64,000 nucleotides of DNA. Origin: Modestobacter marinus (GTDB taxonomy: Bacteria > Actinomycetota > Actinomycetes > Mycobacteriales > Geodermatophilaceae). The notes beneath the pieces were generated by a model, which made no database searches, was not told where the DNA came from, and saw only the letters and a list, made by a program, of their open reading frames with translations. Made by a program: the position numbers and the translations under genes. Within the stretch, counting starts at the first letter, position 1. Each line of letters opens with the position of its first letter. Positions 22,236 through 61,027 of this stretch are shown piece by piece. The stretch covers positions 1,240,001 through 1,304,000 of the forward strand of contig NZ_JAAMPA010000001.1 in the NCBI RefSeq assembly GCF_011758655.1, given 5' to 3'.

Positions 22236-23030
22236 ATGGAGATCTCCGGTGCACGGATCTGGGTCACCGGCGCCTCGACCGGCATCGGCGCGGCGCTGGC
22301 GGCCGAACTGGCCGACCGGGGCGCCCAGGTGGCGATCAGCGCCCGCAACGCCGAGCAGCTCGCTGAGGTGGCCGGGAGCCGGATGGTCGTCGTCCCGCTG
22401 GACGTCACCGACCGGGCGGCGACCGTGGCGGCCGGTGAGCGGGTGCGGCAGGCCCTGGGCGGACTGGACGTCGCCGTGCTCAACGCCGGCACCTGGTCGT
22501 CGTTCCACGTGGAACCGTGGGACTCCCAGCTCTTCGCCGACCACCTGCAGGTCAACGTCATGGGCGCGGTGCACACCATGGAGGCCGTCGTCCCGCAGAT
22601 GCTGGCCGCCGGCCGGGGCCGCATCGTCGGTGTCGCCTCGGTCGCCGGGTACCGCGGCCTGCCCGGGTCGGAGGCCTACAACGCCGGCAAGGCGGCGCTG
22701 ATCAACCTGCTGGAGAGCCTGCGCGGCTCGCTGGCCCCGCGCGGTGTCGTCGTCCAGATCGTGAACCCGGGGTTCGTGACCACCCGGATGACCGACCGGA
22801 ACACCTTCCCCATGCCGTTCAAGGTCCCCGCGGACGTCGCCGCACGCACGATCGCCGACGGCATCGCCGCGGACAAGGCCGAGGTCGTCTTCCCGGTGCC
22901 GATGATGATCGGGATGAAGCTGGCTAGGCTGCTCCCAGTCCGGCTGTGGACCCGGCTCACCGCCGAGCTGGCCCGCCGCGGCGTGACCAGGGCACCCAGC
23001 GCCGAGCCGCCGCCGTCCGCTCAGCGGTGA
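22236..23030 (+). CDS. Short-chain dehydrogenase/reductase
   Basis: 264 residues from ATG. The NAD(P)-binding TGASTGIGAALAAELADRG, the NAG motif (AVLNAGTW), the catalytic Ser in GVASVAGYRG, and Tyr148/Lys152 in EAYNAGKAAL are all present. The C-terminus has a hydrophobic, basic segment (MMIGMKLARLLPVRLWTRL) that could associate with membrane. Substrate unknown. The coding region contains one of three copies of a 14-bp palindrome (22502-22515). The stop codon lies inside a large nested hairpin. Confidence 0.85.
   Translation: MEISGARIWVTGASTGIGAALAAELADRGAQVAISARNAEQLAEVAGSRMVVVPLDVTDRAATVAAGERVRQALGGLDVAVLNAGTWSSFHVEPWDSQLFADHLQVNVMGAVHTMEAVVPQMLAAGRGRIVGVASVAGYRGLPGSEAYNAGKAALINLLESLRGSLAPRGVVVQIVNPGFVTTRMTDRNTFPMPFKVPADVAARTIADGIAADKAEVVFPVPMMIGMKLARLLPVRLWTRLTAELARRGVTRAPSAEPPPSAQR
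22502..22515. promoter_or_regulatory. parS-like palindrome, copy 1
   Basis: GTTCCACGTGGAAC, a perfect 14-bp palindrome inside the SDR coding sequence. It differs at two positions from the common ParB site GTTTCACGTGAAAC. Identical copies lie at 49235 and 61014. Confidence 0.5.
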
Positions 23031-23109
23031 TCAGGTCCCCTGATCGAAAACTGTCCCCCTGCACCAACGCTGGCGCAGGGGGACAGCGGGTGATCAGGGG
23101 ACCTGATCA
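23028..23109. repeat. Nested palindromes between convergent genes
   Basis: The outer arms, 23028-23045 and 23092-23109, are perfect 18-bp inverted copies (TGATCAGGTCCCCTGATC). Each arm is itself a 7-bp hairpin (GATCAGG-TCC-CCTGATC). The inner arms, CTGTCCCCCTGC (23051-23062) and GCAGGGGGACAG (23075-23086), are perfect over 12 bp. The element starts at the SDR stop codon and ends 16 bases before the fabG stop. It can fold as one long stem or as three hairpins, and probably ends transcription both ways. Confidence 0.8.
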
Positions 23110-23125
23110 GTGCTGGGGGCGCGGG

Positions 23126-23881
23126 TCAGGCGCGGGGGCCGCCGGCGACGTAGATGACCTGGCCGGAGACGAAGCCCGCGCCCTCGCTGCACAGGAACGA
23201 CGCGGTGTGCGCGATGTCCTCGGGCTGGCCGACCCGGGCGACCGGGATCTGCTTGGCGGCCATCTCCTTGAACTGCTCGAACGGCACGCCCACCCGCTCG
23301 GCGGTCTGCGCGGTCATCTCGGTCTCGATGAAGCCGGGGGCGATCGCGTTGGCGGTCACGTTGTACCGGCCCAGCTCGATGGCGAGGGTCTTGGTGAAGC
23401 CCTGCATGCCGGCCTTGGCCGCGGAGTAGTTGACCTGGCCGCGGTTGCCCAGCGCCGAGACGCTGGACAGGTTCACGATCCGGCCGTACTCGGCCTCGAC
23501 CATGTGCTTCTGCGCCGCCTTGCTCATCAGGAAGGCGCCCCGCAGGTGCACGCCCATGACGGCGTCCCAGTCGGCGACGCTCATCTTGAACAGCAGGTTG
23601 TCCCGGGTGATCCCGGCGTTGTTCACCAGCACCGTCGGGGCGCCCAGCTCGGCGGCGATCCGCTCGACCGCGGCGTTGACCGACTCCTCCTCGGCGACGT
23701 TCGCACCGACCGCGAGCGCCTCGCCGCCGGCCTTCTGGATCTCCCCGACCGTGTCGGCGCAGGCCGCCTCGTCCAGGTCGAGGACGGCGACCGCCATCCC
23801 GTCCTGCGCGAACCGCCGCGCGATGGCCGCGCCGATCCCGCGCGCCGCACCTGTGATGATCGCCGTCCGCTGCTGAGCCAC
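23126..23881 (-). CDS. fabG: 3-oxoacyl-ACP reductase family SDR (FabG/PhaB-like)
   Basis: 251 residues from GTG. NADPH-binding ITGAARGIGAAIARRFAQDG, NNAGITRDNLLFKMSVADWD (the Asn-Asn-Ala-Gly with the FabG-typical RDNLL), catalytic Ser in NLSSVSALGNRGQVNYS, and Tyr/Lys in YSAAKAGMQGFTK. APGFIETEMT and the C-terminal GQVIYVAGG close the fold. It reduces 3-oxoacyl thioesters in fatty-acid or polyhydroxyalkanoate metabolism. It is monocistronic here, so the exact role is open. Confidence 0.88.
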   Translation of the reverse strand: MAQQRTAIITGAARGIGAAIARRFAQDGMAVAVLDLDEAACADTVGEIQKAGGEALAVGANVAEEESVNAAVERIAAELGAPTVLVNNAGITRDNLLFKMSVADWDAVMGVHLRGAFLMSKAAQKHMVEAEYGRIVNLSSVSALGNRGQVNYSAAKAGMQGFTKTLAIELGRYNVTANAIAPGFIETEMTAQTAERVGVPFEQFKEMAAKQIPVARVGQPEDIAHTASFLCSEGAGFVSGQVIYVAGGPRA

Positions 23882-23983
23882 TGCATCTCCTCGTCGAGTA
23901 CGTCGGCGGGCCACGGTCGTCCGGCCCGCCGTCCTGCCCCAGTGCATAGCACCAGGCCCGCGCGGCGCCTGCACCCGGCCGGG

Positions 23984-25429
23984 TCAGTCCGGGGGCCGGG
24001 CCGTACCGACGGCGAGCGCGCCGAGCGCCAGCGACCACAGCAGCGCCGCACCGACGAGCCACCACGGGACCGCGCCGAGCAGCAGGGCCAGCGCGACCGG
24101 GGCGGTCCCCAGCAGGCCGACGTCCGGCCCGCGCACCAGGGTGCTGCTCACCCCCACGGGGACGGCGCCCATCGGCGAGGCGAGCACGGGGCCGGACCAG
24201 TCCAGGTCGGGGCGGTAGCCGGCGCGCACGGCGGCTCCCGCCCACGCCGGGGCGGTGGCCGCGCCCAGCGCCAGCCACGCGGCCGGTGCGCCGGCGCCCT
24301 GGCCGACGAGCAGCGCCGAGACCCCGCAGACCCCCGCGAGCACCGCGACCGGCACGACCGCCCGGGCCCAGACGACCGCCGCACCGCCCAGCGGCAACGC
24401 CCGGTCGGCGGCCGGCGCCGCGACCGCCCGCCGGCTCGGCTCCCCCAGTGACGTCGCGGCGGTCCCCCAGCCGAGGGCGACGGTCACCGCCACCAGGGCG
24501 GGCAGCTCGGCCAGCCCCTCGGTGCGGGCGGCCAGCACCGGCAGCGCCGCCCCGGCCGCCAGCTGCCCCCACCGCCACGGGGACCGGGCCAGCACCGCCA
24601 GGTCGCCGGCGACGACCGCCTGCCACGGCCGCCGCACCCAGCGCCAGGCCAGCGGGCGCCGCGGCCGGCGCACCGTCGTCCCCAGCGCCCGGCCGAGCTC
24701 ACGGGTGTCCAGCGAGAAGACCGACGCCGTGGCGTACTGCGCGGTCTCCCCCGACGCGCGGAGCGCGCCGGCGGACAGGTCCGCCAGCCGCCGGTCGGCC
24801 AGGGCCAGGCAGAGGACGGCGACCACCAGCAGCCCACCCAGCAGCCCCGTCGCCACCGGCGCCGGCAACCACCCGCCCGCGACGTCGGGCAGGTCCACGC
24901 CCAGCCCGGCGACCACGCACCCGGCGACGGCCGGGCCCACCAGGGCCAGCGCGGTCACCGCACCGGCGACCGGGGGCACCCACCGGCCGCCACCACCGGC
25001 CTGCCGGACGACGAGCACCCCGACGGCGGCACCCGGCAGCAGCGCACCGGCCGCCAGCCCGGCCAGGACGCCGGCCGGTGTCCGGCTCCAGGCCAGCACC
25101 ACCGGGACGCCGACGGCCAGCGCCGCCGCCACCGCCAGGCCGACCGCCCGGCGCAGCTCCCCGCGCAGCAGCCCGCGCCGCCCCGCGGGCAGGGGCAGCC
25201 ACCACGCCGCGGCCGCCGGTGTGGCGCTGACCGGCCCCAGCCGGGCGAACAGTGCGGTCAGCCCCGCGGCCAGGGAGAGCGCGACGGCCGCCGCGGTCAG
25301 CCCGCCGGGGAGCACCGCCGCATCGACGGCCGGCCGGGCGGCGATCTGCTCGCGGAGGCTGGAGACGGCGCCTCCGCACAGCGCCACGAGGACCCCGGCG
25401 GAGGTGAGCCCGGACAGCGTGTCCCCCAC
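23984..25429 (-). CDS. Polytopic membrane protein, partner of the upstream ABC ATPase
   Basis: 481 residues from the GTG at 25429, very rich in Ala, Leu, Val and Gly, with about ten hydrophobic helices (AVALSLAAGLTALFARLG, AVGLAVAAALAVGVPVVLAW, LLGGLLVVAVLCLALADRRL). It follows an ATPase gene and resembles actinobacterial ABC-2-like permeases of unknown substrate (possibly DUF6297-like; not verified). The same frame stays open upstream to the ATPase stop at 25550. It contains a Shine-Dalgarno GGAGGG seven bases before an ACG codon that would begin ACG-Thr-Thr-Ala-Ala-Pro-Pro. The true start may be that ACG, adding 40 residues. Confidence 0.7.
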   Translation of the reverse strand: MGDTLSGLTSAGVLVALCGGAVSSLREQIAARPAVDAAVLPGGLTAAAVALSLAAGLTALFARLGPVSATPAAAAWWLPLPAGRRGLLRGELRRAVGLAVAAALAVGVPVVLAWSRTPAGVLAGLAAGALLPGAAVGVLVVRQAGGGGRWVPPVAGAVTALALVGPAVAGCVVAGLGVDLPDVAGGWLPAPVATGLLGGLLVVAVLCLALADRRLADLSAGALRASGETAQYATASVFSLDTRELGRALGTTVRRPRRPLAWRWVRRPWQAVVAGDLAVLARSPWRWGQLAAGAALPVLAARTEGLAELPALVAVTVALGWGTAATSLGEPSRRAVAAPAADRALPLGGAAVVWARAVVPVAVLAGVCGVSALLVGQGAGAPAAWLALGAATAPAWAGAAVRAGYRPDLDWSGPVLASPMGAVPVGVSSTLVRGPDVGLLGTAPVALALLLGAVPWWLVGAALLWSLALGALAVGTARPPD

Positions 25430-25549
25430 CCGGGTCAGCCAGCTGGTGTCGGCCCGGGCGGCCGTCGCCCGGCGGGTGTACCGGCGAACGGCGGTGCCGC
25501 TCCACTCCTCCTGCCGACGCGCCCGTGGCGGAGCCGCCGTGGTCGTGGC

Positions 25550-26227
25550 TCAGCCCTCCTGCAACGCCGCGACGGCGTCCTCGGGCGCGACCACCGGGCA
25601 CTCGTCCTCGCCGACCACCAGCACCCGGTCGGCGAGGGTGCCGACGAACGTCGGGTCGTGGCTGGCGAACAGCACCGCACCGCCGGCGTCCACCAGCGCC
25701 GCGAGCCGGTCGGCCAGCGCCCGGCGCATCGCGGTGTCCAGCCGGCGTTCCGGCTCGTCGAGCACCAGCAGGTCGGCCGGGCGCACCAGCGCCCCGGCCA
25801 GCGCCAGCCGCCGGCGCTGGCCGGAGGAGAGCGCCGAGGGCAGCGCGCCGGCCCGGTCGGTCAGCCCGAAGGCGGCCAGCTCGGCGTCGACCACCTGCTC
25901 GGCGCCGGTGACCCCGTGGGCGCGGGCGGTGAGCAGCAGGTGCTCCGCGCCGGTCAGCGACGGGAAGAACGCATCGTCGTCCAGCACCCCGGCGACCGCG
26001 CGGCGGAAACCGGCGTCCCGCTCGTCGACCGGCCCACCGGCGAAGCGGACCGTCCCGGCCAGCGGCGGCAGCAGACCGACCATCGTCTGCAGCACGGTGG
26101 ACTTGCCGGCACCGTTCGGGCCGACCAGCGCGACCGCCGTCCCGGGTTCGACCGACACCGTCACGGGGGCGCACACCGGCTCGTCGCCGTAGCCGACCGA
26201 GAGCTCCTCGGCGGCCAGCAGGGCCAT
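25550..26227 (-). CDS. ABC transporter ATP-binding protein
   Basis: 225 residues from ATG; the start shares a base with the tenA stop (TGATG). Walker A VGPNGAGKST, Q-loop near VAGVLDDDAFFPSLTG, signature SSGQRRRLALAGALV, Walker B DLLVLDEPERRLD and the switch His in FASHDPTFVG are all present. The form is that of drug/ABC-2-type ATPases, not of an ECF or thiamin-binding-protein importer. It is translationally coupled to two TenA genes and a membrane protein, which suggests it moves thiamin-related compounds (inference). Confidence 0.88.
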   Translation of the reverse strand: MALLAAEELSVGYGDEPVCAPVTVSVEPGTAVALVGPNGAGKSTVLQTMVGLLPPLAGTVRFAGGPVDERDAGFRRAVAGVLDDDAFFPSLTGAEHLLLTARAHGVTGAEQVVDAELAAFGLTDRAGALPSALSSGQRRRLALAGALVRPADLLVLDEPERRLDTAMRRALADRLAALVDAGGAVLFASHDPTFVGTLADRVLVVGEDECPVVAPEDAVAALQEG

Positions 26228-26856
26228 CAGCCGGACTCCGCACCACCGCGCCAGGCGGCGTCGAAGAAGCCGACCTCCAGCTCCATGGCCCGCCGGTAGG
26301 CGCGCCGGACCGCGGGCGTGTCGGCGGCCGTGCCGTCCAGCAGCCGCTCCAGCGTGGCCGCCAGCTCCTCGAAGCCCGGGTCGGTGTAGGTGGTGACCCA
26401 CTCGGCGTAGGCGGGCGCCGCTCGGCCGGCCAGCGACTGCCCGAGGTGGGCGTACAGCCGCATGCACGGCGTCATCGCCGCGCAGGTCAGCCCGCTGCCG
26501 CCCAGGGCCGCCGTGGCGAGCAGGAAGTCGGTGTAGGCCAGCGTGGCCGGCAGCGGCTCGACCGCGGCCAGGTCGATGCCCCAGCGGGCGGCGTAGCCCT
26601 CGTGCAGCCGCAGCTCCTCGCGGACGCCGGCGAGCAGGTCGGCGAAGACGTCCAGCGCGGCCCGGTCGGGGCTGTGCGCGGCGCCGAGGGCGTAGCCGCG
26701 GGCGAAGGACTCCAGGAAGAACGCGTCCTGGGCGACGTAGCCGGCGAACAGCTCCGGCGGCAGGCTGCCGTCGCCGATGCCCTGCACGAACGGGTGCGCC
26801 CGCGCGACGGCGGCGAGGTCGGCGTTCTCGGCCCAGAGGTCGGCGGCCAGGCTCAT
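26227..26856 (-). CDS. tenA: TenA family protein (aminopyrimidine aminohydrolase/thiaminase II type)
   Basis: 209 residues from ATG. HPFVQGIGDGSLPPELFAGY, then VAQDAFFLESFARGYAL, is the TenA N-terminal helix pair. A Cys lies in LTCAAMTPCMRLYAHLG at the active-site position of the TenA_C group, and VTTYTDPGFEELAATLERLL has the terminal Glu region. TenA hydrolyses degraded thiamin pyrimidines back to HMP, salvaging thiamin. It overlaps the first TenA-like gene by four bases (ATGA). Confidence 0.86.
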   Translation of the reverse strand: MSLAADLWAENADLAAVARAHPFVQGIGDGSLPPELFAGYVAQDAFFLESFARGYALGAAHSPDRAALDVFADLLAGVREELRLHEGYAARWGIDLAAVEPLPATLAYTDFLLATAALGGSGLTCAAMTPCMRLYAHLGQSLAGRAAPAYAEWVTTYTDPGFEELAATLERLLDGTAADTPAVRRAYRRAMELEVGFFDAAWRGGAESG

Positions 26857-27590: not shown

Positions 27591-27595
27591 CCGTG

Positions 27596-32900: not shown

Positions 32901-35396
32901 TCAGCGCGCCGGGGGCAGCACCTCGTCGGGGTGCAGCCGGACGGCGACCAGCGCGACGTCGTCCTCCGACCCCTGCGGGCGCAACCGGTCGACGATCTGG
33001 TCCAGCAGCTCCCCCAGCGGCAGGTCCCCCAGCTCGGCGAGCAGGCCGGCCAGCCGGGCCACCCCGTCGTCGAGCGGGAGGTCGCGTCCCTCGACGAGGC
33101 CGTCGGTGTAGAGGACGACCGTCGCACCGGGCTGCAGCAGCACCTCGTGCTCCCGGCGGGGGGCGTCGGCGGCCACGCCGAGCATCAGGTCGGCCCGCTG
33201 GGTGTCCAGCACCACGACCCCACCGTCGGCGTGCCGCACCATCAGCGGCGGGTGGCCGGCGTTGGACCAGCGCAGCCGCGTCTCCCCCCGCCCCGGCTCC
33301 CCGCCGGTCCGTTCCAGCCGGGCCACGGCCGCGGTCGCCAGGGTGTGCAGCTGGAGCCCCTCGATGGCGCCGTCCAGGTCGCGGAGCACCTGCACCGGGC
33401 CGGCCGCGTTGCGCCAGGCGATCCCGCGCAGCAGGCCGCGCAGCTGCCCCATCGCCGCAGCCGCCTTCGTGTCGTGCCCGACGACGTCACCGATCGCGAG
33501 GACCGTCGTCCCGTCCGACTGGAGGAACGCGTCGTACCAGTCGCCGCCCACCTGGGCGGCCTGCACGGCCGGGGAGTACCGGACGGCGATGTCGGCGTGG
33601 TCCGGCTGCGGCGGGTCGGTGAGCAGGCTGCGCTGCAGGTCCTCGGCCATCCGGCGGTGCTGCTCCTGCAGCGCCGCGCTGTCCAGCGCCAGGGCCACCC
33701 GACCGGCGAGCTGGTGGACGACCTCGACGTCCTCGGGGTCCATGGGGTCGCGGTCGGCCGAGCGGTAGACGCTCATGGCGCCCACCGTCCGGCCGTGCGC
33801 GGTCAGGCCGAGGGCGACCGCCGTCGCCGGGGCCAGCGTCTCGAACGCCTCGCGCACGGGCCCGGGCGGCAGCGTCCGCCCGACCGCCTCGGTCACGTCG
33901 GGGACCTCGATCACCTTGCCGCTGGCCAGCGCGGCGACGAGGGGGGCGGTCGAGGTGAGGGCGGCCAGCCGCAGCTCGGCGTAGCGCTCCGCGACCGGCC
34001 GGAGACCGGGGTCCCGGTGCCAGGTGGCGACGTCCTGCAGCCGGCCGCCCTCGTCCGTCAGGCTGACGATCACCCAGTCCCCGAGGGCGGGGACGACGCC
34101 GAGCGCCAGCTCGCGCATGGCCTCCGCCGCCCCCCGGCCGTCGACCAGGGCGGCGGCGACGGTGTCGGAGACCCGGGTGACCAGGGCCAGCCCCTCGGCC
34201 CGTCGCCGCGCCGCCTGCTCGGTCCGGTAGCGCTCGGTGACCTCGCTGAAGTAGACCGACAGCCCCTCGAGGGTCGGCCAGGCGCGCACCTCGTACCAGG
34301 CGTCCAGGGGCGGCGGGTAATAGGCGTCGAAGGCGGCCGGTTCGCCGGACGTCATCGCCTGCCGGTAGTTGGTCTCGAACCCGCTGCCGACCGCATCGGG
34401 GAACAGCTCCCACAGGTCGCCGCCGAGCAGCTGCGCCCGGGTCGCGCCGAGCAGCTCCTCGGCGCCACCGTTGACGTAGCGGAAGGTCCAGTCCCGGTCC
34501 AGCGAGAAGAACGCCGCCGGCATCGACTCCAGGACCTCGGCGACCTGCGCCTCGACCCGCCGCTGCGCGGTGGCGTCGTGGGCCACCCCGACGACCCGGA
34601 CCGCCGTCCCCGTCCCGTCCAGGACGGCGCGGCCCCGGGCGCGCACCCAGCGGAGCTCCCCGCTGGGCAGCTGGACCCGGTGCTGCTGGTCGAAGCCCTC
34701 GCCGGTCACCAGCGCCGTGCGGATCGTGGCGGTGACGCCGTCCGCGTCCTCCGGGTGCAGCCGCTCGATCAGCGCGCTCAGCGTGCCGGGGAAGGCCGCG
34801 CGGTCCCAGCCGTAGAGGTCGAGCAACCGGTCGTCCCAGATCAGCTGGTCGGCGACGGCGTCCCAGTCGAAGCTGCCGAGCTCGGCCGCGTCGATGGCCA
34901 GGCCCCAGCGCCACCGGTTGGCCTCCGACTCCGCACCGACCGCGGCCAGCCGGAGCTCCGTCGCGACGCACTCGGCGAGCAGGTGGAGCACGGCGACGTC
35001 CTGGTCGGTCCAGTCCCGGGGCGCGGCCCCGAAGACGCACAGGGCGGCGTGCCAGCCCTGCAGCGGCACACCCAGGTAGGCGCCGATCTCACCGGAGGTG
35101 ACCAGTGCCCGGTCCGCGACCCGGGGGTCGTTCGCGGCGTCCCGGACGACGAGGGGCTCCCCGGTCTCGACGGTCACGGCGCACAGCGACTCGGCCAGCG
35201 GCAGCTCGAGCGCCTGCCGCGCGGCCGCCGGGCCGCTGAGGACGGCAGCCGTCTGCATCTCACCGATCAGCGAGAGCTGGGCGACGTCGGGCCCCAGCAG
35301 CCGGGCGGCCAGGTCGGCCAGCCGCTGGAGGACCGGCCCGGCGGCCACCGCCGCAGCCCGGGCAGCCGCCCCGTGGGCTGGGTCGTACCCCGACAT
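32901..35396 (-). CDS. Multi-sensor PP2C-type (SpoIIE) phosphatase
   Basis: 831 residues. Order: GAF (about 15-150), PAS (about 165-280: SFDWDAVADQLIWDDRLLDL, then LRWVRARGRAV), second PAS (about 285-400: AAFFSLDRDWTFRYVNGGAE), second GAF (about 410-570) and SpoIIE phosphatase (about 600-825). The metal-binding Asp are in QVGGDWYDAFLQSDG, AIGDVVGHDTKAAAAM and VVLYTDGLVEGRDLPLDD. It should dephosphorylate a STAS protein, releasing a stress sigma factor, in response to signals read by the PAS and GAF domains. No membrane segment is present. Confidence 0.9.
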   Translation of the reverse strand: MSGYDPAHGAAARAAAVAAGPVLQRLADLAARLLGPDVAQLSLIGEMQTAAVLSGPAAARQALELPLAESLCAVTVETGEPLVVRDAANDPRVADRALVTSGEIGAYLGVPLQGWHAALCVFGAAPRDWTDQDVAVLHLLAECVATELRLAAVGAESEANRWRWGLAIDAAELGSFDWDAVADQLIWDDRLLDLYGWDRAAFPGTLSALIERLHPEDADGVTATIRTALVTGEGFDQQHRVQLPSGELRWVRARGRAVLDGTGTAVRVVGVAHDATAQRRVEAQVAEVLESMPAAFFSLDRDWTFRYVNGGAEELLGATRAQLLGGDLWELFPDAVGSGFETNYRQAMTSGEPAAFDAYYPPPLDAWYEVRAWPTLEGLSVYFSEVTERYRTEQAARRRAEGLALVTRVSDTVAAALVDGRGAAEAMRELALGVVPALGDWVIVSLTDEGGRLQDVATWHRDPGLRPVAERYAELRLAALTSTAPLVAALASGKVIEVPDVTEAVGRTLPPGPVREAFETLAPATAVALGLTAHGRTVGAMSVYRSADRDPMDPEDVEVVHQLAGRVALALDSAALQEQHRRMAEDLQRSLLTDPPQPDHADIAVRYSPAVQAAQVGGDWYDAFLQSDGTTVLAIGDVVGHDTKAAAAMGQLRGLLRGIAWRNAAGPVQVLRDLDGAIEGLQLHTLATAAVARLERTGGEPGRGETRLRWSNAGHPPLMVRHADGGVVVLDTQRADLMLGVAADAPRREHEVLLQPGATVVLYTDGLVEGRDLPLDDGVARLAGLLAELGDLPLGELLDQIVDRLRPQGSEDDVALVAVRLHPDEVLPPAR

Positions 35397-49233: not shown

Positions 49234-49249
49234 GGTTCCACGTGGAACC
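49234..49249. promoter_or_regulatory. parS-like palindrome, copy 2
   Basis: GGTTCCACGTGGAACC, a perfect 16-bp palindrome in the intergenic space upstream of a GNAT gene. It contains the same 14-mer as the sites at 22502 and 61014. Confidence 0.55.
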
Positions 49250-49288: not shown

Positions 49289-49826
49289 GTGCCCGGCTCC
49301 CCCTCGACCGTCCTCCGCCCGATGACGGCGGCCGACTGGCCCGCCGTCCGCGAGATCCTCGCCGCCGGCATCGCCACCGGCCTCGCCACCTTCGAGACCG
49401 AGCCACCGAGCTGGGCGGCCTTCGACGCCTCACGCCTGGCCGGTCACCGGCACGTCGCCACCGACGACACCGGCACCGTGCTCGGCTGGGTGGCGTGCAC
49501 CCGCGAGTCGCCGCGGGCGGCGTATGCCGGCGTGGTGGACCACTCGGTCTACGTCGCCGCGCACGCGGCCGGGCGGGGCGTCGGGCGGCTGCTGCTGCAG
49601 GCGCTCATCGACTCGACCGAGGCCGACGGCATCTGGACCATCCGGGCGGCCGTCCTCCCGGCCAACACCGCGAGCCTCGCGCTGCACGAGCGGCTCGGGT
49701 TCCGGGTGGTCGGCCGCCGCGAGCGGGGTCGGCCGCCGGGTCGTCGACGGTCGGGCGACCTGGCACGACGTGCTGTTCCTCGAGCGACGCAGCCGGGTGG
49801 TCGGCCGGGACGGCGACCCGGCCTGA
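49289..49826 (+). pseudogene. GNAT acetyltransferase (phosphinothricin-acetyltransferase-like) with a frameshift
   Basis: Residues 1-145 are intact: TVLRPMTAADWPAVREILAA, GLATFETEPPSWAAFDA, VYVAAHAAGRGVGRLLLQAL (acetyl-CoA loop) and NTASLALHERLGFRVVGRRE. After that the frame turns to Arg/Pro/Gly. The true family ending (VGRRVVDGRATWHDVLFLER, then RSRVVGRDGDPA) is in the next frame and stops at 49826. Dropping one G from the GGGG at 49724-49727 joins them into about 178 residues. The enzyme may still fold, since the break is near the end. Without correction the frame would stop at 49894. Confidence 0.78.
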
Positions 49827-49832
49827 TCCGCC

Positions 49833-49861
49833 GTCAGGCCGGCGGGCCGCCGACCAGCAGC
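49833..49861. repeat. 29-bp direct copy of the cinA 3' end
   Basis: Bases 49833-49861 are identical to 49965-49993, which encode the end of CinA on the minus strand (LLVGGPPA plus stop). The copy lies just past the frameshifted GNAT gene. The DNA between the copies carries further GC-rich partial matches, so this is probably a small duplication scar. Confidence 0.75.
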
Positions 49862-49965
49862 CGCGCGGCGGGCCGGGACGGCGGCCCGGCCTGACCGGCG
49901 TCAGCCCGGGGCGACGGATCCGCAGCCACGTGGTGGTCAGGATCGCGACCTGGCCCGACCCACGG

Positions 49966-52601: not shown

Positions 52602-54509
52602 CTACCCGCGCACCCGCACCGCCAGCAGGGCGACGTCGTCGTCCACGGACCCCTCGAGCTCGGCCAGCAGCCGGTCGCACAGCGCCTCCAGCGGGAGGTG
52701 CGCCCACCGGGCGAGCGCCCCGGCCAGCCAGGCCGTGCCCTCGTCCAGCACCGCACCCCGGCGCTCCACCAGCCCGTCGGTGTAGAGCAGGACCGTCGAG
52801 CCGGGCGCGAGCAGCTGGGTGTGGTCGCTCCGCGGGACGGACGGGTCGACGCCCAGCAGCAGGTCCGGCTCGCGCTCGAGCACGGTCACCGTGCCGTCGG
52901 GGTCGAGCAGCAGCGGTGGAGGGTGCCCCGCGTTGCTCCAGCGCAGCAGCCGGTCACCGGCCCCCACCTCCTCGACCGTGGCCAGCGCGGCGGTGGCGAG
53001 GGTGTCCACCTGCAGGTCCAGCAGCGCCCGGTCCAGCGCGCCGAGCACCGCACCCGGGGAGCCGCGCCCGCTGTGCGCGACCCCCCGGAGCACGTTGCGG
53101 ACCTGCGCCATCGCCGCCGCCGCGTGCCGGTCGTGCCCGGTGACGTCGCCGATCACCAGGGCGATCCGGCCGTCGCCCAGCAGGAAGGCGTCGTACCAGT
53201 CACCGCCGACCTGGGCCAGCGACGCCGCCGGCAGGTACCGGACGACGATCTGCAGGTCCTCGGCCTCGGGCGGTTCGGTGAGCAGGCTGCGCTGCAGCGC
53301 CTCGGCCATGCCCTCCACGACCGCGTGCTGGGCGCGCTCGTCGGCCCGGGCGCGGATGCGCTCCAGCGCCAGGGCGGACTGACCGGCCAGCGCCTGCAGC
53401 AGCTCCAGGTCGCTCTCCTCCAGTCCCGGGGAGTGCATCCAGCCCACGCTGAGCGACCCGATCCGCCCGGAGCCGCTCTCCAGCGGCACCGCCGCCCAGG
53501 CGTGGACACCCGTCGCGGCCGCCAGCCGGGCCAGCTGGGGGGAGAACGCCTCGGTGGCCGCCCGGTCGGGCAGCAGCACCCGCGCCCCCGTGCGGGCGGC
53601 GACGCAGCTGGGATAGGGAGCGTCCAGCGACAGCACCGTGTCCGGCCCGACGCCGACCGGGGCGATCCCGTCGGTGAGCACCAGCCGCAGCTGGTGGGCG
53701 CCGTCGCACACCCCGATCCCGCCGCCGTGCGCGCCCAGCGCCACCAGACCGCGCTCGTTGACCACCCGGGCCAGGTCGTCGAGCGTCTCCGCGCGCCCCA
53801 GCGCCAGGGCCACGCCGGAGAGGGCGGCGAGCCGGCGTGCGGTGTCCGCCTCGGCCTGGCGGGCGGCGCGGAGCTCGGCGCCACGGGCGAACAGGTCGCT
53901 CTCCACCTCCAGCACCCGGCGGTGCCAGCGCCTCCCCCGTCCGCTGGGGTGGTCGGACATGGCCTGCTGGCGCACGTAGTCGGTGATGTCCTCGACCCGC
54001 TGCATCAGGTGCCGGCAGCGCCCCTCGCCGTCCAGCACCGGGACGCTGATCAGGCTCCAGAAGTGCTTGGTGAAGCCGCCCGAGCCGTCGGGGATGTCGA
54101 ACTCCTGGACGGGCAGGGTGTGCGGGCGGCAGGTGTCCCGGGCCCGCTCGAGGGACGCCCGGATCCGGCTGCCGCTGGCGTCGGGGGCGGTCGAGTGGGG
54201 GTTGCCGGGGAACGCCTCGAAGACCGGCCGGCCGACCAGGTCCTCCCGGGTCCGGCCGGTGTTGGCGAGGTAGGCCGGGTTGGCGTCGACGATGACCAGC
54301 TGAGGCGTCAGGACCAGGTACGGGGTGGGCATCGCGGCGAAGAGGTCCGCGTGGTCAGGACGGGTGGGGTCCCGAGGGGTGTGGTCAGGAGGGGCGTTGT
54401 CGGGAGGGGCGTGGCCCGGCTCCGGGTGGGCCGGGGACGACGGTGGCGGGCCCGCGCCAGGATGCCGGGTGCCGGTCGGCTCGTCCGACCCGTTCGCCCG
54501 CGCGCCCAC
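52602..54509 (-). CDS. PAS-GAF-SpoIIE phosphatase
   Basis: 635 residues from GTG. A disordered N-terminus with PPDHTP-like 5-residue repeats (about 1-50). It is followed by PAS (about 55-175: PTPYLVLTPQLVIVDANPAY, ending EDITDYVRQQAM), a helical linker, GAF (about 225-385: AALSGVALALGRAETLDDLA) and SpoIIE (about 410-632). Metal Asp residues: QVGGDWYDAFLLGDGRIAL, VIGDVTGHDRHAAAAMAQVR, VLLYTDGLVERRGAVLDEG. It is the second phosphatase of this type in the window and could feed the same or another STAS switch. Confidence 0.9.
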   Translation of the reverse strand: MGARANGSDEPTGTRHPGAGPPPSSPAHPEPGHAPPDNAPPDHTPRDPTRPDHADLFAAMPTPYLVLTPQLVIVDANPAYLANTGRTREDLVGRPVFEAFPGNPHSTAPDASGSRIRASLERARDTCRPHTLPVQEFDIPDGSGGFTKHFWSLISVPVLDGEGRCRHLMQRVEDITDYVRQQAMSDHPSGRGRRWHRRVLEVESDLFARGAELRAARQAEADTARRLAALSGVALALGRAETLDDLARVVNERGLVALGAHGGGIGVCDGAHQLRLVLTDGIAPVGVGPDTVLSLDAPYPSCVAARTGARVLLPDRAATEAFSPQLARLAAATGVHAWAAVPLESGSGRIGSLSVGWMHSPGLEESDLELLQALAGQSALALERIRARADERAQHAVVEGMAEALQRSLLTEPPEAEDLQIVVRYLPAASLAQVGGDWYDAFLLGDGRIALVIGDVTGHDRHAAAAMAQVRNVLRGVAHSGRGSPGAVLGALDRALLDLQVDTLATAALATVEEVGAGDRLLRWSNAGHPPPLLLDPDGTVTVLEREPDLLLGVDPSVPRSDHTQLLAPGSTVLLYTDGLVERRGAVLDEGTAWLAGALARWAHLPLEALCDRLLAELEGSVDDDVALLAVRVRG

Positions 54510-56332: not shown

Positions 56333-56479
56333 CGTGCGCCGTCCCCTCGTCCTGCCTCGTCCGCGGTGCGACCCCCAGCCGGCCGGCGCTGGCGGGCTGG
56401 ACGCACCGAGCGGGTGGGTGCCCCGTCCGAGCGTGCCTACACATGCCGACGCCCGGCTCGTCGCCCGATTCTGCCAGCG

Positions 56480-57583
56480 TCAGGTCGTGACGGACCATTC
56501 CCGCGCGAGGTGTTCACCTGCCACCGCCAACCAGTGAGCTGGGTCGCCCATGGCACCGTCGACCGAACCAGCGAGGTCGGTGAGCGAGAGCGCCCGGGTC
56601 ACCGGCAGCCCCTCCGCCGCCACGACCCGGCCGGCGACCACCGCCACCGGAACCGCCGCACGGTGCGCCCGCTCGACCAGGTCGCCCACCACCTTGCCCC
56701 GCAGTGACTGGGCGTCGAACTGCCCCTCGCCGGTCACCACCAGGGCCGCGCCCCGCAGGGCCTCGTCCAGACCCGCCGCGGCGGCCACCGCCTGCGCGCC
56801 GCTGACGAACTCTGCCCCCCAGCAGACCGCGAAGCCGTAGGCGGTCCCGCCGGCCGCCCCGGCCCCCGGCGCCTCCCGGTCGCCGCCGAGCAGGTCGGCC
56901 AGCCGGGACAGCGCCGCGTCGAGCTCGGCCACCTGGGCGGGGTCCGCACCCTTCTGGGGCCCGAACTGGACGGCGGCGCCCAGCGGCCCCAGCAGGGGTG
57001 CGGTGACGTCGACCAGGCACTGCACGCCACCGGCCGGCGGCGGCACCAGCCCGGCGAGGTCCACCCGGTCCAGCCGGGAGAGGGCGCCGCCGCCGGGGGG
57101 CAGTGGCGCGCCGTCGGCGTCCAGGAACCGGGCGCCCAGGGCCGCGAGCGCACCGGTGCCGCCGTCGGTCGTGGCCGAGCCGCCCAGGGTGAGCATCACC
57201 CGGTGCACGGCCGGGTCGGCGACGACGGCGGCGAGCAGCTGCCCCAGCCCCCGGGTGGTCGCCCCGAGCGGATCGGGCCGCTCCATGAGGGGCAGCCCGG
57301 CCGCCCGGGCCATCTCCACCACCGCCGTCCCGTCGGGGAGCAGCAGCCAGGCGGCGTCCACCGGACGCCCGTCCGGCCCGGTCACCTGTGCACTGCGCCA
57401 GCAGGTGGCCGGGAGGTCGTGCCCGAGCGCCTCGAGGGTGCCCTCACCACCGTCGGCCAGGGGGACGGTGAGCAGTTCGTCGTCCGGTCGCACCGAGCGC
57501 CAGCCGGCGGCCAGCGCCTCGGCGGCCGCCGCCGCACCGAGCGTCCCCTTGAAGGAGTCGGGCGCGATCGCCACCCGGGTCAC
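56480..57583 (-). CDS. Glycerate kinase (GarK/GlxK family)
   Basis: Phosphorylates D-glycerate, usually to 2-phosphoglycerate in this family. 367 residues from GTG. VAIAPDSFKGTLGAAAAAEA, PLADGGEGTLEAL, MLTLGGSATTDGGTGALAAL, FGPQKGADPAQVAELDAAL and VVTGEGQFDAQSLRGKVVGD are all family motifs. It stands alone and is not near glyoxylate genes. It is separated by 147 bases from the kinase gene, on the same strand. Confidence 0.92.
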   Translation of the reverse strand: MTRVAIAPDSFKGTLGAAAAAEALAAGWRSVRPDDELLTVPLADGGEGTLEALGHDLPATCWRSAQVTGPDGRPVDAAWLLLPDGTAVVEMARAAGLPLMERPDPLGATTRGLGQLLAAVVADPAVHRVMLTLGGSATTDGGTGALAALGARFLDADGAPLPPGGGALSRLDRVDLAGLVPPPAGGVQCLVDVTAPLLGPLGAAVQFGPQKGADPAQVAELDAALSRLADLLGGDREAPGAGAAGGTAYGFAVCWGAEFVSGAQAVAAAAGLDEALRGAALVVTGEGQFDAQSLRGKVVGDLVERAHRAAVPVAVVAGRVVAAEGLPVTRALSLTDLAGSVDGAMGDPAHWLAVAGEHLAREWSVTT

Positions 57584-57694
57584 CCTCGGTCACCGTCGCC
57601 GTCGTCGCCGCACATGACCGGCAGCCTCGCCGGTGCCGGGGCCGCACGGCAAGCCGGGTGGGCCGGACAGGGCACGGCGGGCCGGGCGGGCCGG

Positions 57695-57861
57695 TCAGAA
57701 CGAGACGGGATGAGTGGACCGATCAGAACAAGGCGGACCGAGCGGCCCGGTCAGAACGGGGCGGGATGAGCGAGCCGTTCAGAACGGGGCGGGCTGGCAG
57801 GCGGGTCAGAACGAGGCGGGCTGGGCGGACCGGTCAGAACGAGGGGGGCTGGGCGAGCCGG
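57695..57861. repeat. 28-bp tandem repeat, six copies
   Basis: The word TCAGAAC recurs at 57695, 57723, 57751, 57779, 57806 and 57834 (spacing 28, 28, 28, 27, 28). Each is followed by a variable GC-rich part of the type GAGGCGGGCTGGGCGGACC. It lies in the 420-bp gap between the glycerate kinase start and the small unknown gene. Long frames on both strands here are by-products of the repeat. Confidence 0.85.
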
Positions 57862-58005
57862 CCTCGACAGGACGGCCGAACGAGGCGGACGGGTGAGGCG
57901 GACGGGTGAGGAATGTGTCGCCAGCAGGTACCGATCCGCTCGCGAGGTGCCGAGGAGGACCCCGACGGCCGCTCGCGCAAGCCCACGACCAGGAGTGCAG
58001 GTCCG

Positions 58006-58404
58006 ATGATCGGTGCCATGTCCACGTCCGCCACCCCGACCCGGGGCCTGCGACCCATCTCCGTGCGCGCCACCACCCCGGCTCGCTGGCGGCGGAATGC
58101 ACTCGCTGCCCTCACCGCCGAGGACCGCGCGCTGCTCGCCGAGGCGACCGGCGTGCTGCTGACCGCGGACGGCGAGCGGGCTGACGGACGTGAGCTCGTC
58201 CCCGCGGTCGCCTCCGCCGTGGCACGGGACCGCCTGACCGGGCGGCTGCCCACCGGCCGGCCGGTCACGCGCACCTACCTCGAACAGCTGTGGGCCGCGC
58301 TGCCCCTCGGTGCGGGCTCGGCGGCGACCATCCGGGACATCACCGCGCTGCTGGACGTGCTGGCCCGCCGAGACGCGCTGCAGGCGCTGGCCCAGCCCGC
58401 CTGA
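58006..58404 (+). CDS. Small uncharacterised protein between repeat arrays
   Basis: 132 residues from the ATG at 58006 (a second ATG is four codons later, [13 protein letters not shown]); AGGAG lies ten bases upstream. It is mainly helical: [80 protein letters not shown]. There is no signal peptide and no known family. The stop codon falls inside the first unit of a 15-bp repeat array. Codon bias is normal for the genome, so it is likely a real gene. Confidence 0.6.
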
Positions 58405-58611
58405 CCCACGCCCGCCTGACCCACGCCCGCCTGACCCACGCCCGCCTGACCCACGCCCGCCTGACCCACGCCCGCCTGACCCACGCCCGCCTGACCCACG
58501 CCCGCCTGACCCACGCCCGCCTGACCCACGCCCGCCTGACCCCCACGCCCGCCTGACCCCCACGCCCGGCTGACCCCCTGCCCGGCTGACCCCCTGCCCG
58601 GCTGACCCACG
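58396..58611. repeat. 15-bp tandem repeat array
   Basis: Nine exact copies of CCCGCCTGACCCACG (58396-58530), then five variant copies of 15 to 17 bp (with ACCCCCACG or GGCTGACCCCCTG) to 58611. The first copy includes the stop of the upstream gene. Because 15 is divisible by 3, every unit repeats a TGA in that frame, and the other frames give repetitive Arg/Pro or Gly/Val/Gln translations that are not proteins. Confidence 0.92.
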
Positions 58612-58655
58612 CCTCAGCCGCCGCCACCTGCACTGCCCACCAGGTCGACCTCCGG

Positions 58656-58698
58656 GTGCTAGTGCTCTGGTGCACCAGTACAGCCAGAGCACTAGCAC
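58656..58698. repeat. Perfect inverted repeat with 15-bp arms
   Basis: GTGCTAGTGCTCTGG (58656-58670) and CCAGAGCACTAGCAC (58684-58698) are exact complements around 13 bases. The centre also contains CTGGTGCACCAG, so an alternative hairpin can form. It is less GC-rich than the surroundings. It sits between the 15-bp and 17-bp arrays. Confidence 0.8.
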
Positions 58699-58771
58699 GC
58701 CAGACCCTGGATGCTGCCGGCGTCGGCATGCCCTCGGGCTCGCCGGCCACCTCGCTACGGCGTGCGCAGCT

Positions 58772-59043
58772 CGCGAACCGGCTGGGCCCACGAACCGGCA
58801 CGGCCCACAGATTGGCGGAGCTGACAGACCGCCTTCGCTCACGGACCGCCTCGGCTCACGGACCAGCTCGGCCCACGAACCAGCTCGGCCCACGAACCAG
58901 CTCGGCCCACGAACCAGCTCGGCCCACGAACCAGCTCGGCTCACGGACCGGCGGAGCTCACGAACCGACCGAGCTCACAGACCGGCGGAGCTCACAGACC
59001 GGCGGAGCTCACGGACCGGCTCAGCCCACGGACAGGCGGAGCC
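58772..59043. repeat. 17-bp tandem repeat array, sixteen copies
   Basis: Sixteen units of 17 bp with the pattern CACGRACCRGCTCGGCC. The five central ones (58857-58941) are nearly identical, four reading CACGAACCAGCTCGGCC or differing by one base, and the outer ones diverge (GGCGGAGCT, CAGACC). The length is not a multiple of three, so this is not a protein repeat. Evenly spaced 17-bp direct repeats recall iterons, but no replication gene is near. Confidence 0.85.
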
Positions 59044-59257
59044 GAGGAGGCCGCGTCCGCACCTCACGCAGTCCGATGAGATGGCTCGCGGCGAAGCCCT
59101 GTGCCACGGCGACCCCCGAACGCGACGGGGTCCTGCGTCCGGGGATCGAGGCAGTCCGACCTCGGACGGCCGTGACCCTCCGGTGCAGCACGCGCCGGCC
59201 GACCACCTACCAGCAGAATGGGCCGCGCCCGGACCACCGTCAGCAGAGGAGCTGTCG

Positions 59258-59296
59258 ATGCACGCCCAGGAGACGCACCCCCAGGACCTGCCATGA
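59258..59296 (+). CDS. Twelve-codon leader peptide upstream of the acyl-CoA dehydrogenase gene
   Basis: ATG with a very good Shine-Dalgarno (GAGGAG, six bases before) encodes MHAQETHPQDLP. Its TGA overlaps the ATG of the next gene (ATGA). Translation of the leader probably loads ribosomes on the next gene by re-initiation. The 200 bases upstream hold only the end of the repeat array and GC-rich spacer. Confidence 0.5.
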   Translation: MHAQETHPQDLP

Positions 59297-60174
59297 CCGG
59301 CCCTGAACCCACCGGCGCGCCTCTCCCGGACCAGGTCGGGGTGATCGGCGGGGGCCGGATGGGCGCCGGTATCGCCCAGGCGTTCCTGGTCGCCGGCGCG
59401 CGGGTCGAGGTGGTCGAAGCCGGGGACGAGGCCGCCGAGGCCGCCCGCGGCCGGGTGTCGGCCGGGCTCGAGGAGGCCGCTCGGCGCGGCAAGCTCAGCG
59501 ACGCGGTCGGCGAGGTGCTCGGCCGGCTCACCCTGGTCGACTCCCCCGCCCAGCTGACCCCCCACGCCGGCCTGGTGGTGGAGGCGGTGCCCGAGCGCGC
59601 GGACCTCAAGGTCGCCGTGCTCACCGTCGCGGAGTCCGTGCTGGGGCCCGACGCCGTGCTGGCGACCAACACCTCCTCCCTCTCGGTCACCGAGCTGGCC
59701 GCCGCACTGCAGCGTCCGGCGCGCTTCCTGGGCCTGCACTTCTTCAACCCGGTGCCCGCCTCGAAGCTGGTCGAGGTGGTCGTCGCCCCGGAGACCGGCG
59801 ACGACGTCGTCGCGGCCTCCCGCGACTGGGTGCGCGCCCTGGGCAAGACCGACGTGGTGGTGCGGGACTCCCCCGGCTTCGCGTCGTCCCGGCTGGGCGT
59901 GCTGCTCGGGCTGGAGGCGATCCGGATGCTGGAGGAGGGCGTCGCCGACGCCGAGGCGATCGACGCGGCGATGGAGCTGGGCTACCGGCACCCGATGGGC
60001 CCGCTGCGCTCGACCGACCTCGTCGGCCTGGACGTGCGGCTGGCGATCGCCGAGTACCTCGCCGGCACATTGGGCGAGCGCTTCACCCCACCGCAGTTGC
60101 TGCGTGACAAGGTGGCCGCCGGCGAGCTGGGCCGCAAGACCGGCCGCGGCTTCCACGACTACGCAGAGAACTGA
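59293..60174 (+). CDS. 3-hydroxyacyl-CoA dehydrogenase (3-hydroxybutyryl-CoA dehydrogenase type)
   Basis: 293 residues from ATG. Rossmann GVIGGGRMGAGIAQAFLVAG, catalytic Ser/His region TNTSSLSVTELAAALQRPAR, then FLGLHFFNPVPASKLVEVV, and the C-terminal DSPGFASSRLGVLLGLEAIR, then YRHPMGPLRSTDLVGLDVR. It oxidises 3-hydroxyacyl-CoA with NAD. It is paired with an enoyl-CoA hydratase ten bases downstream. This pair fits fatty-acid, phenylacetate (PaaH-like) or hydroxybutyrate metabolism; no further pathway gene is present to decide. Confidence 0.9.
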   Translation: MTGPEPTGAPLPDQVGVIGGGRMGAGIAQAFLVAGARVEVVEAGDEAAEAARGRVSAGLEEAARRGKLSDAVGEVLGRLTLVDSPAQLTPHAGLVVEAVPERADLKVAVLTVAESVLGPDAVLATNTSSLSVTELAAALQRPARFLGLHFFNPVPASKLVEVVVAPETGDDVVAASRDWVRALGKTDVVVRDSPGFASSRLGVLLGLEAIRMLEEGVADAEAIDAAMELGYRHPMGPLRSTDLVGLDVRLAIAEYLAGTLGERFTPPQLLRDKVAAGELGRKTGRGFHDYAEN

Positions 60175-60184
60175 GAGGACGACG

Positions 60185-60985
60185 ATGTCCGCACCCGGCG
60201 CCGAGCCCACCGTCACCCGCACCGACGCCGACGGCGTCGCCACCCTGACCCTGCAGCGCCCGGCGCTGTCCCACCGGCTGCGCACCGAGCTGCTCGCCGC
60301 CGTGCGGGAGGTCGCCGCCGACGAGTCGGTGCGCGCCGTGCTGCTCACCGGGAGCGGCCGGGCGTTCTGCGTCGGTCAGGACCTCGCCGAGCACGTCGAC
60401 GAGCTGCGCTCCGAGCGACCGGACGGCGCACCGTCGCTGTCGGTGGTGGAGGCCGAGTACAACCCGCTGATGCTGGCGCTGGCCGCCCTGCGGGTGCCTC
60501 TCGTGGTGGGGATCAACGGGGCGTGCGCCGGCGCGGGCCTGGGGATCGCGCTCGCCGGCGACCTGCGGGTCGCCGCGGCCGGCGCGAAGCTGACCACCGC
60601 GTTCGCCGGCATCGGGCTGTCCAGCGACTCCGCGCTGGCCTCGCGGCTGGTGCACTGCGTCGGCGGGTCCCGGGCGGCGGAGCTGCTGCTGCTGCCCGAG
60701 CCGTTCCTCGCCGAGACCGCCGCCGAGTGGGGCCTGGTGCACCGCGTCGTCCCGGCCGCGGACGTGCTCGCCGAGGCGACCGCGCTCGCCACCCGGCTCG
60801 CCGCCGGGCCGACCCTGGCCTACCGGGCGATCAAGACCGTGCTCGCGACGGCGGCGACCGACGGCCTCGAGGACACCCTGGCGCTGGAGGCGAGCCTGCA
60901 GACCGACCTGGGGGCGACCGCCGACCACCGCGAGGCCGTCGAGGCCTTCCTGGCCAAGCGACCACCGGTCTTCACCGGCCGCTGA
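60185..60985 (+). CDS. Enoyl-CoA hydratase/isomerase family protein
   Basis: 266 residues from ATG (Shine-Dalgarno GAGAGGA). Crotonase fold: LLTGSGRAFCVGQDLAEHVD forms the first oxyanion-hole segment, and VVGINGACAGAGLGIALAGD the second, with the Gly-Ala-Gly pattern. The catalytic Glu of true hydratases in the later AFAGIGLSSDSALASRL region is replaced by Ser/Asp residues. Asp may act as in PaaG-type isomerases. It follows the dehydrogenase in one operon. Confidence 0.88.
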   Translation: MSAPGAEPTVTRTDADGVATLTLQRPALSHRLRTELLAAVREVAADESVRAVLLTGSGRAFCVGQDLAEHVDELRSERPDGAPSLSVVEAEYNPLMLALAALRVPLVVGINGACAGAGLGIALAGDLRVAAAGAKLTTAFAGIGLSSDSALASRLVHCVGGSRAAELLLLPEPFLAETAAEWGLVHRVVPAADVLAEATALATRLAAGPTLAYRAIKTVLATAATDGLEDTLALEASLQTDLGATADHREAVEAFLAKRPPVFTGR

Positions 60986-61013
60986 GCGAGGCCCCGCCCC
61001 GCGGCGGGCCGGA

Positions 61014-61027
61014 GTTCCACGTGGAAC
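61014..61027. promoter_or_regulatory. parS-like palindrome, copy 3
   Basis: GTTCCACGTGGAAC in the 57-bp intergenic space after the enoyl-CoA hydratase gene. It is identical to the palindromes at 22502 and 49235. Confidence 0.55.

What the first reader, a model, noticed from the sequence alone, without database searches (positions are those of the whole stretch)
22502..61027. Three exact copies of GTTCCACGTGGAAC, a parS-like palindrome
The 14-bp palindrome occurs at 22502-22515 (inside a gene), 49235-49248 and 61014-61027 (both intergenic). With about 74% GC, a rough estimate is far below one chance copy in 64 kb. It resembles the ParB site GTTTCACGTGAAAC with one symmetric change (T to C, A to G). 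It could be the lineage form of parS, marking an origin-proximal region, or the site of another regulator.
Basis: partly seen in the sequence, partly recalled or inferred. Interest (0 to 1): 0.75.

Follow-up and report, generated by a model that had tools for sequence, protein, structure and literature searches.

The report
Two-grade chromosome centromere (parS) sites
The repeated palindrome is almost certainly the docking site that this soil bacterium's ParB protein uses to pull apart its copied chromosomes, and its family also keeps a second, one-letter-different form of the site that tends to lie farther from the replication origin.

Summary
Confirmed, and the parS reading is supported. The window lies in a Modestobacter-like genome (Geodermatophilaceae). 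GTTCCACGTGGAAC occurs 11 times in 5.10 Mb, all within 176 kb of contig C1; about 0.01-0.02 are expected. The run surrounds dnaN/dnaA and parAB, with one copy beside parA. The three window copies lie about 88, 61 and 49 kb left of the dnaN-dnaA gap. In a sample of 200 genomes of the order, 28 of 28 of this family carry 7-15 copies and none carries GTTTCACGTGAAAC, which 138 of 172 others carry. The same letters are a ParB site in Myxococcus and Pseudomonas, so the sequence is not new.

Not found in the library: a second, asymmetric class, GTTGCACGTGGAAC, in 28 of 28 family genomes against 4 of 172 others. It keeps orthologous places across species and ranks farther out than the palindromes in all ten genomes mapped, though the ranges overlap in seven. 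Orthologous places switch between forms. I read it as a lower-affinity ParB site: inferred, not shown. Coding constraint may explain part, since 48 of 68 examined lie in genes.

The parts
22502..22515 (.). parS palindrome GTTCCACGTGGAAC, about 88 kb left of the dnaN-dnaA gap (genome C1:1262502)
   Evidence: the 14 letters are intact at the aligned place in 3 of 3 other Modestobacter genomes compared
22236..23030 (+). short-chain dehydrogenase gene that contains the first site, in frame as TTC CAC GTG GAA (Phe-His-Val-Glu); the ATG start is my choice by eye
   Evidence: (PF00106, E 1.8e-44, for ORF 22200-23030)
49235..49248 (.). parS palindrome GTTCCACGTGGAAC, intergenic, about 61 kb left of the dnaN-dnaA gap (C1:1289235)
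   Evidence: intact in 2 of 3 other genomes with a diverged 3' flank, no alignment across the site in the third
49289..49894 (+). GNAT acetyltransferase gene next to the second site
   Evidence: PF00583, E 2.5e-13
60104..60985 (+). enoyl-CoA hydratase/isomerase gene that ends 28 bp before the third site
   Evidence: PF00378, E 2.6e-50
61014..61027 (.). parS palindrome GTTCCACGTGGAAC, intergenic, about 49 kb left of the dnaN-dnaA gap (C1:1301014)
   Evidence: intact in 2 of 3 other genomes although the flanks carry gaps, no alignment across the site in the third

Best explanation
The three copies are parS, the ParB loading (centromere) sites of a chromosomal ParABS system. ParB dimers bind the palindrome, load as CTP clamps, slide out, and the ParB-parS complex is moved by ParA and recruits SMC so that sister origins separate first (mechanism from established knowledge of ParABS, not tested here). 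In the Geodermatophilaceae genomes sampled the palindromic form is GTTCCACGTGGAAC, 7-15 copies per genome, 87 of 93 mapped copies within 100 kb of parB; GTTTCACGTGAAAC is absent. Mostly outside this core lie 2-10 asymmetric sites GTTGCACGTGGAAC (one half-site intact, the other with C4 to G), and a few GCTCCACGTGGAAC, which I infer to be weaker ParB sites kept at fixed places. Shown: count, position, conservation, family specificity, orthologous switching between forms. Inferred: ParB binding, its strength, and the effect on segregation or SMC loading.
For: 11 of 11 exact copies lie in 176 kb of a 5.10 Mb genome (about 3e-14 under uniform scatter). dnaN is at C1:1348528-1349688, the dnaA frame at 1350433-1352739, then rsmG, parA and parB up to 1358.8 kb, so 5 copies lie left and 6 right of the dnaN-dnaA gap, from -88 to +89 kb. 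One copy and one GTTTCACGTGGAAC lie 35 bp apart just before parA; 14 of 14 named family loci that reach that far have such a pair, where most loci of other families carry GTTTCACGTGAAAC-type sites. One ParB_N protein in the genome at E up to 0.001; it has ParB_N, HTH_ParB and ParB_C and, by my line-up, the equivalents of Caulobacter R173 and G201, which select parS over the Noc site. The form is in 28 of 28 family genomes at 7-15 copies and in 54 of 172 others at 1-4. Palindromes are intact in 23 of 24 alignable comparisons with three other Modestobacter genomes, 9 of 33 not alignable. The same 14 letters are bound by ParB of M. xanthus and P. aeruginosa in vitro (passages). 87 of 93.
Against: No binding, ChIP or genetic data for a Geodermatophilaceae ParB turned up. 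In Corynebacterium glutamicum, parS-like sequences with three or more mismatches did not recruit ParB (passage), so binding of the one-mismatch class cannot be assumed. The core/periphery split is a tendency: ranges overlap in 7 of 10 mapped genomes, and in the single-contig genome G089 palindromes also lie at -205, -254 and -350 kb, among the asymmetric ones. One palindrome (1424368) and one asymmetric site (1583121) are lost at the aligned place in G009. The window genome is in 12 contigs.
Confidence: 0.94

Rival explanations
1. The asymmetric sites are ordinary parS sites whose fourth base is fixed by the protein they run through: the half-site must spell Leu (TTG, or CTC in the GCT form) rather than Phe (TTC). 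They are a coding compromise without a separate role.
For: 48 of 68 asymmetric sites examined are in genes against 23 of 64 palindromes (Fisher p 1e-4, rows related). 34 of the 48 read Leu-His-Val-Glu. In the YaaA-like gene of the 1477254 site the outgroup residue is Leu in 14 and Met in 5 of 22 aligned loci.
Against: 20 of 68 were called intergenic, and several keep the G in all species aligned; but at least two of the 20 (the 1603779 place in G000 and G059) are probably miscalled, since that place is in a gene in G050 and in other genera. At a palindrome inside a helicase-like gene the residue is Leu in 5 of 5 outgroup loci and Phe in 6 of 6 family loci, so coding did not prevent the palindrome there. 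It does not by itself explain the distance from the origin.
Confidence: 0.3
2. The asymmetric GTTGCACGTGGAAC is the site of a different DNA-binding protein that merely resembles parS.
For: The departure is mostly one and the same letter, which random decay of parS would not give: of the 10 one-mismatch places of the window genome 7 are this form, out of 21 possible kinds.
Against: Orthologous places carry the palindrome in one genome and another form in others: one place in G150 against five genomes, and at C1:1551472 the GCT form in three genomes against the palindrome in G009, across small alignment gaps. Same chromosomal zone; intact CACGTG core and one intact half. Only one ParB_N protein in the genome.
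Confidence: 0.1
3. The palindrome is the operator of a transcription regulator (E-box-like CACGTG core), not parS.
For: It is a palindrome and two of the three window copies are intergenic.
Against: 8 of 11 copies are intergenic and 3 inside genes; all lie around dnaN/dnaA/parAB; the identical sequence is a ParB site elsewhere.
Confidence: 0.02
4. The three copies are a chance recurrence.
For: None beyond the palindrome being short.
Against: Expected 0.009-0.017 copies per genome against 11 found; conserved with diverged flanks.
Confidence: 0.001

Closest known systems
parS of Myxococcus xanthus (22 sites, consensus TGTTCCACGTGGAACG)
   Same: Same 14-letter palindrome near oriC, bound by ParB in vitro (PMC3899335, passages).
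   Different: There a 3.1-kb fragment holds the 22 sites; here 11 sites are spread over 176 kb, and an asymmetric, mostly outer class is present.
parS1-10 of Pseudomonas aeruginosa
   Same: Perfect sites TGTTCCACGTGGAACA near oriC plus imperfect, lower-affinity sites (PMC4368675, passages).
   Different: The six weakest sites there each have their own two mismatches and two lie opposite oriC; none of the ten is GTTGCACGTGGAAC. Here one variant recurs 2-10 times in every family genome sampled.
parS of Streptomyces and Corynebacterium glutamicum
   Same: Actinobacterial ParABS with multiple origin-proximal sites; in Streptomyces parAB lies beside oriC (PMC8743542, PMC7083940, passages).
   Different: Most genomes of other families of the order sampled here carry GTTTCACGTGAAAC (138 of 172); the C. 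glutamicum sites form one 35-kb cluster 73 kb from oriC, and Streptomyces sites lie mostly right of oriC.
Bacillus subtilis parS sites of unequal strength
   Same: Strong sites mostly clustered near the origin and weaker ones farther out, argued to help avoid collisions of SMC complexes (PMC8357415, passages).
   Different: One distal site (-304 kb) is relatively strong there; no single recurrent weak sequence fixed across a family is described in the passages I saw.

Membership tests
chromosomal ParABS / parS | 14-16 bp palindrome matching GTTYCACGTGRAAC (consensus recalled, in line) | tested here: met
   GTTCCACGTGGAAC, 11 exact copies
chromosomal ParABS / parS | Sites clustered around the replication origin | tested here: met
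   11 of 11 within -88 to +89 kb of the dnaN-dnaA gap
chromosomal ParABS / parS | parA and parB genes adjacent, ParB with parS-type HTH residues | tested here: met
   parA then parB between C1:1356.6 and 1358.8 kb; R173 and G201 equivalents, by my line-up, in 35 of 35 family rows
chromosomal ParABS / parS | ParB binds the site and spreads from it with CTP | not testable with these tools
   No experiment possible; the same letters are bound by other ParBs
chromosomal ParABS / parS | Loss of sites disturbs origin segregation | not testable with these tools
   Needs mutants
Noc / NBS (nucleoid occlusion) | Q and R at the positions of Caulobacter ParB 173 and 201 | tested here: not met
   R and G in 35 of 35 rows; the NCBIfam Noc model scores 226.9 bits, below its cut-off of 315
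asymmetric class as weak parS | Located in the same zone and interchangeable with the palindrome at orthologous places | tested here: met
   (one orthologous place, six genomes); a GCT-form place
asymmetric class as weak parS | Bound by ParB with lower affinity | not testable with these tools
   Needs binding assay or ChIP

The most novel reading that the evidence does not exclude
Geodermatophilaceae chromosomes carry a graded centromere: a palindromic core of ParB loading sites around oriC, and a mostly outer set of asymmetric, half-intact sites whose single-letter defect is itself under selection, so that ParB (and with it SMC) loads weakly at fixed places some 40-450 kb from parB. The defect has stayed at the same loci across genera, inside and outside genes.
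Probability: 0.5. Interest if true: 0.62.

Novelty: new variant of a known kind. Interest (0 to 1): 0.5.

Why it matters
The sites locate origin and centromere in a family for which the library searches (20 of 98 papers listed) showed no parS work. The outer class is a natural, repeated experiment on how strong a centromere site may be at a given distance from the origin, a question otherwise studied by moving or mutating parS in B. subtilis, C. glutamicum and P. aeruginosa. It also shows selection on the DNA site strong enough to keep rare codons: 8 of 10 Leu-His-Val-Glu stretches in the Modestobacter genes scanned use TTG CAC GTG GAA, expected share 2.6e-4 (orthologues in four genomes counted separately).

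Tried and rejected
ParB residue behind the T-to-C change at base 4: in the recognition helix, position 205 is Ser in 35 of 35 family rows and Pro in 60 of 62 outgroup rows (L059 was left out of that count and has Pro, which makes 61 of 63). At least three of the 35 rows are one genome twice, judged from equal contig lengths. I do not claim it as the cause: neither outgroup Ser locus (L044 Rhodococcus rhodnii, L071 Nocardia colli) shows the palindromic C form. Among solved structures the residue is Pro in 6sdk and Ser in 7bnk and 6s6h; I recall these as B. subtilis, M. xanthus and Caulobacter, and Caulobacter as a T-form user. Residue 174 of Caulobacter ParB, which I take as its equivalent, is not mentioned in the paper searched.

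Polarity: in the window genome 6 of 7 asymmetric sites have the altered half towards the origin, but strands in other genera are mixed, so dropped.

Motif against flank identity of intergenic sites by a loose alignment (0.84 against 0.68 for palindromes, 0.85 against 0.74 for the asymmetric class) is blunt, because gaps misplace some sites. The aligned rows are better evidence: palindromes intact in 23, lost in 1 and not alignable in 9 of 33 comparisons; asymmetric sites intact in 14, lost in 1 and not alignable in 3 of 18. The seventh asymmetric site (908847) was outside the stretch and not compared.

With N at both variable places and one further mismatch the genome has 28 places, and the read-backwards control 7; the exact and one-mismatch searches had a control of 0.

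Rows left out of counts: one search used 10 of 28 family genomes (those with usable position lists) and left out 4 asymmetric sites on other contigs (G050, G116, G130, G150) and 1 palindrome of G050 outside the fetched stretch. G199 was treated as circular. One search examined 68 of the 135 asymmetric sites, and 64 palindromes. In one search, 28 of 30 YaaA-like loci aligned over the site, out of 51 genomes with a match.

Promoter and terminator scans, Rfam and structure prediction were not run. Livny 2007, the parS survey cited in the papers seen, is not held, so whether it lists these forms is unknown to me.
Full report
OBSERVATION. GTTCCACGTGGAAC is exact at 22502, 49235 and 61014 and has no other match with up to two mismatches in the window (the three were also read in place). 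The window is C1:1240001-1304000 of a 5,102,893-base, 12-contig assembly. Genome-wide there are 11 exact copies, all in C1:1262502-1438623; the read-backwards control found none. Markov models of order 1-4 expect 0.009-0.017 copies per genome; 11 points within 176 kb have a probability of about 3e-14 under uniform scatter.

PLACE. The only PF02195 (ParB_N) match at E up to 0.001 is at C1:1358007. dnaN (1348528-1349688) and the dnaA frame (1350433-1352739) lie on the minus strand; a Jag-like frame (below the model's cut-off) and rsmG follow on the plus strand, then parA and parB. oriC lies between dnaN and dnaA in Streptomyces (passage), so I take the gap at 1349689-1350432 as its likely place. 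From there the 11 sites run from -88 to +89 kb, 5 left and 6 right; the window holds the three leftmost. A pair, GTTTCACGTGGAAC and GTTCCACGTGGAAC 35 bp apart, stands just before the likely start of parA; the longest parA frame begins inside the second site.

LINEAGE. A ParB search of named genomes gave Modestobacter sp. VKM Ac-2977 as the best hit at 97% identity, with other Modestobacter, Klenkia, Blastococcus and Geodermatophilus after it (records of the window's own genome may be left out there). The unnamed family f1 of the genome searches is taken as Geodermatophilaceae because contigs of G050, G059 and G009 have the lengths of named Modestobacter records. 14 of 14 named family loci that extend past parA carry a pair there: 6 with a T-G and a C-G site, 4 with two C-G, 4 with a C-G and a C-A (letters 4 and 11); three family loci (L032-L034) are too short to tell. 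In the same 200 genomes of the order, GTTCCACGTGGAAC is in 28 of 28 family genomes at 7-15 copies and in 54 of 172 others at 1-4; GTTTCACGTGAAAC is in 0 of 28 and 138 of 172. The family has therefore exchanged the form that prevails in its order.

SECOND CLASS. Allowing one mismatch, the window genome has 10 more places: 7 GTTGCACGTGGAAC, 2 GCTCCACGTGGAAC and 1 GTTTCACGTGGAAC, out of 21 possible kinds. GTTGCACGTGGAAC has an expectation of 0.01-0.02 per genome. It occurs in 28 of 28 family genomes (2-10 copies, 135 in all) and in 4 of 172 others, once each. In ten family genomes mapped against parB, with 93 palindromes and 57 asymmetric sites on the parB contig, 40 palindromes but no asymmetric site lie within 40 kb of parB. 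The asymmetric sites rank farther out in each genome (one-sided p 0.0007-0.033; pool 9e-17, without correction for kinship). 87 of 93 palindromes and 13 of 57 asymmetric sites are within 100 kb; the ranges overlap in 7 of 10 genomes. In three single-contig family genomes all 49 exact or one-mismatch places lie between -350 and +451 kb of parB (G199 taken as circular). G089 departs most from a clean split, with palindromes out to -350 kb.

CONSERVATION. In four Modestobacter genomes the map agrees at most places. Against three of them, palindromes are intact in 23 of 24 alignable comparisons (9 of 33 not alignable) and asymmetric sites in 14 of 15 (3 of 18 not alignable). At 1464232 and 1486492 (intergenic) the asymmetric 14-mer is intact in both genomes that align while the downstream flank has diverged. 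The YaaA-like gene site (1477254) is intact in six of six family genomes aligned there, and a like site at the same codon, read RR.GLHVEH, recurs in further genera. Orthologous places switch form: in G150 one gene has the palindrome where five other genomes have GTTCCACGTGCAAC, at 74-79% identity of the surroundings; at 1551472 three genomes have GTTCCACGTGGAGC and G009 the palindrome. Such switching is expected if one protein, ParB, reads them all.

CODING. With a home-made codon-usage gene caller, 41 of 64 palindromes are intergenic and 23 in genes; 20 of 68 asymmetric sites are intergenic and 48 in genes. The caller is imperfect: the 1603779 place is called intergenic in G000 and G059 but in a gene in G050. 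In genes the asymmetric sites read Leu-His-Val-Glu (34), Phe-His-Val-Gln (10) or other (4). TTG and GAA are about 0.2% of codons each (printed before it failed). Of 10 Leu-His-Val-Glu stretches in the Modestobacter genes scanned, 8 use TTG CAC GTG GAA, with an expected share of 2.6e-4 (orthologues counted separately). So the letters are selected as DNA. Whether Leu also restrains the base is open: outgroup YaaA-like proteins have Leu (14) or Met (5) at that place in 19 of 22 aligned loci, but a palindrome in a helicase-like gene goes with Phe in 6 of 6 family loci against Leu in 5 of 5 others.

MECHANISM. Most likely ParB loads at the palindromes, slides, is moved by ParA and recruits SMC, and the asymmetric sites load less ParB. 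In P. aeruginosa perfect palindromes bind best, and sites with one intact arm bind better than sites altered in both. In B. subtilis strong sites are mostly clustered, and moving strong sites apart makes SMC collisions noticeable. That would explain why strong sites stay central and outer ones weak. Against: C. glutamicum ParB ignored sites with three or more mismatches. I have no binding data for this family.

LITERATURE. GTTCCACGTGGAAC is in nine papers of the library (listing), among them work on M. xanthus and P. aeruginosa parS (passages). GTTGCACGTGGAAC and its complement GTTCCACGTGCAAC are in none. No paper holds the whole words parS, ParB and Geodermatophilaceae together, and none of the 20 titles listed of 98 is on the subject. 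Seen as passages only: PMC4368675, PMC7383237, PMC7022226, PMC8743542, PMC8357415, PMC7083940, PMC3899335. This library lacks most subscription papers.

Noticed in passing
window 58395-58557: Tandem array of a 15-bp unit (GCCCGCCTGACCCAC), about ten copies, the last ones degenerating.
   Followed up: no
window 33418-33650 and 53077-53309: Two 233-bp stretches 75% alike, 19.7 kb apart, perhaps paralogous gene segments.
   Followed up: no
G180 C1:2662572-2663192: A second, distant ParB-like protein (31% identity) in one single-contig family genome, 1.33 Mb from the chromosomal parB.
   Followed up: no
ParB position 205 (recognition helix), family against outgroup rows: Ser in 35 of 35 family rows, Pro in 60 of 62 outgroup rows; also Thr in 35 of 35 against Arg in 59 of 62 at 222. 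A candidate for the base-4 preference, not established.
   Followed up: partly
G000 C1:1217996 and 1551472: GCTCCACGTGGAAC, a third rare form, also kept at fixed places: 1551472 in three Modestobacter genomes, 1217996 in two (a third has GATCCACGTGGAAC).
   Followed up: partly
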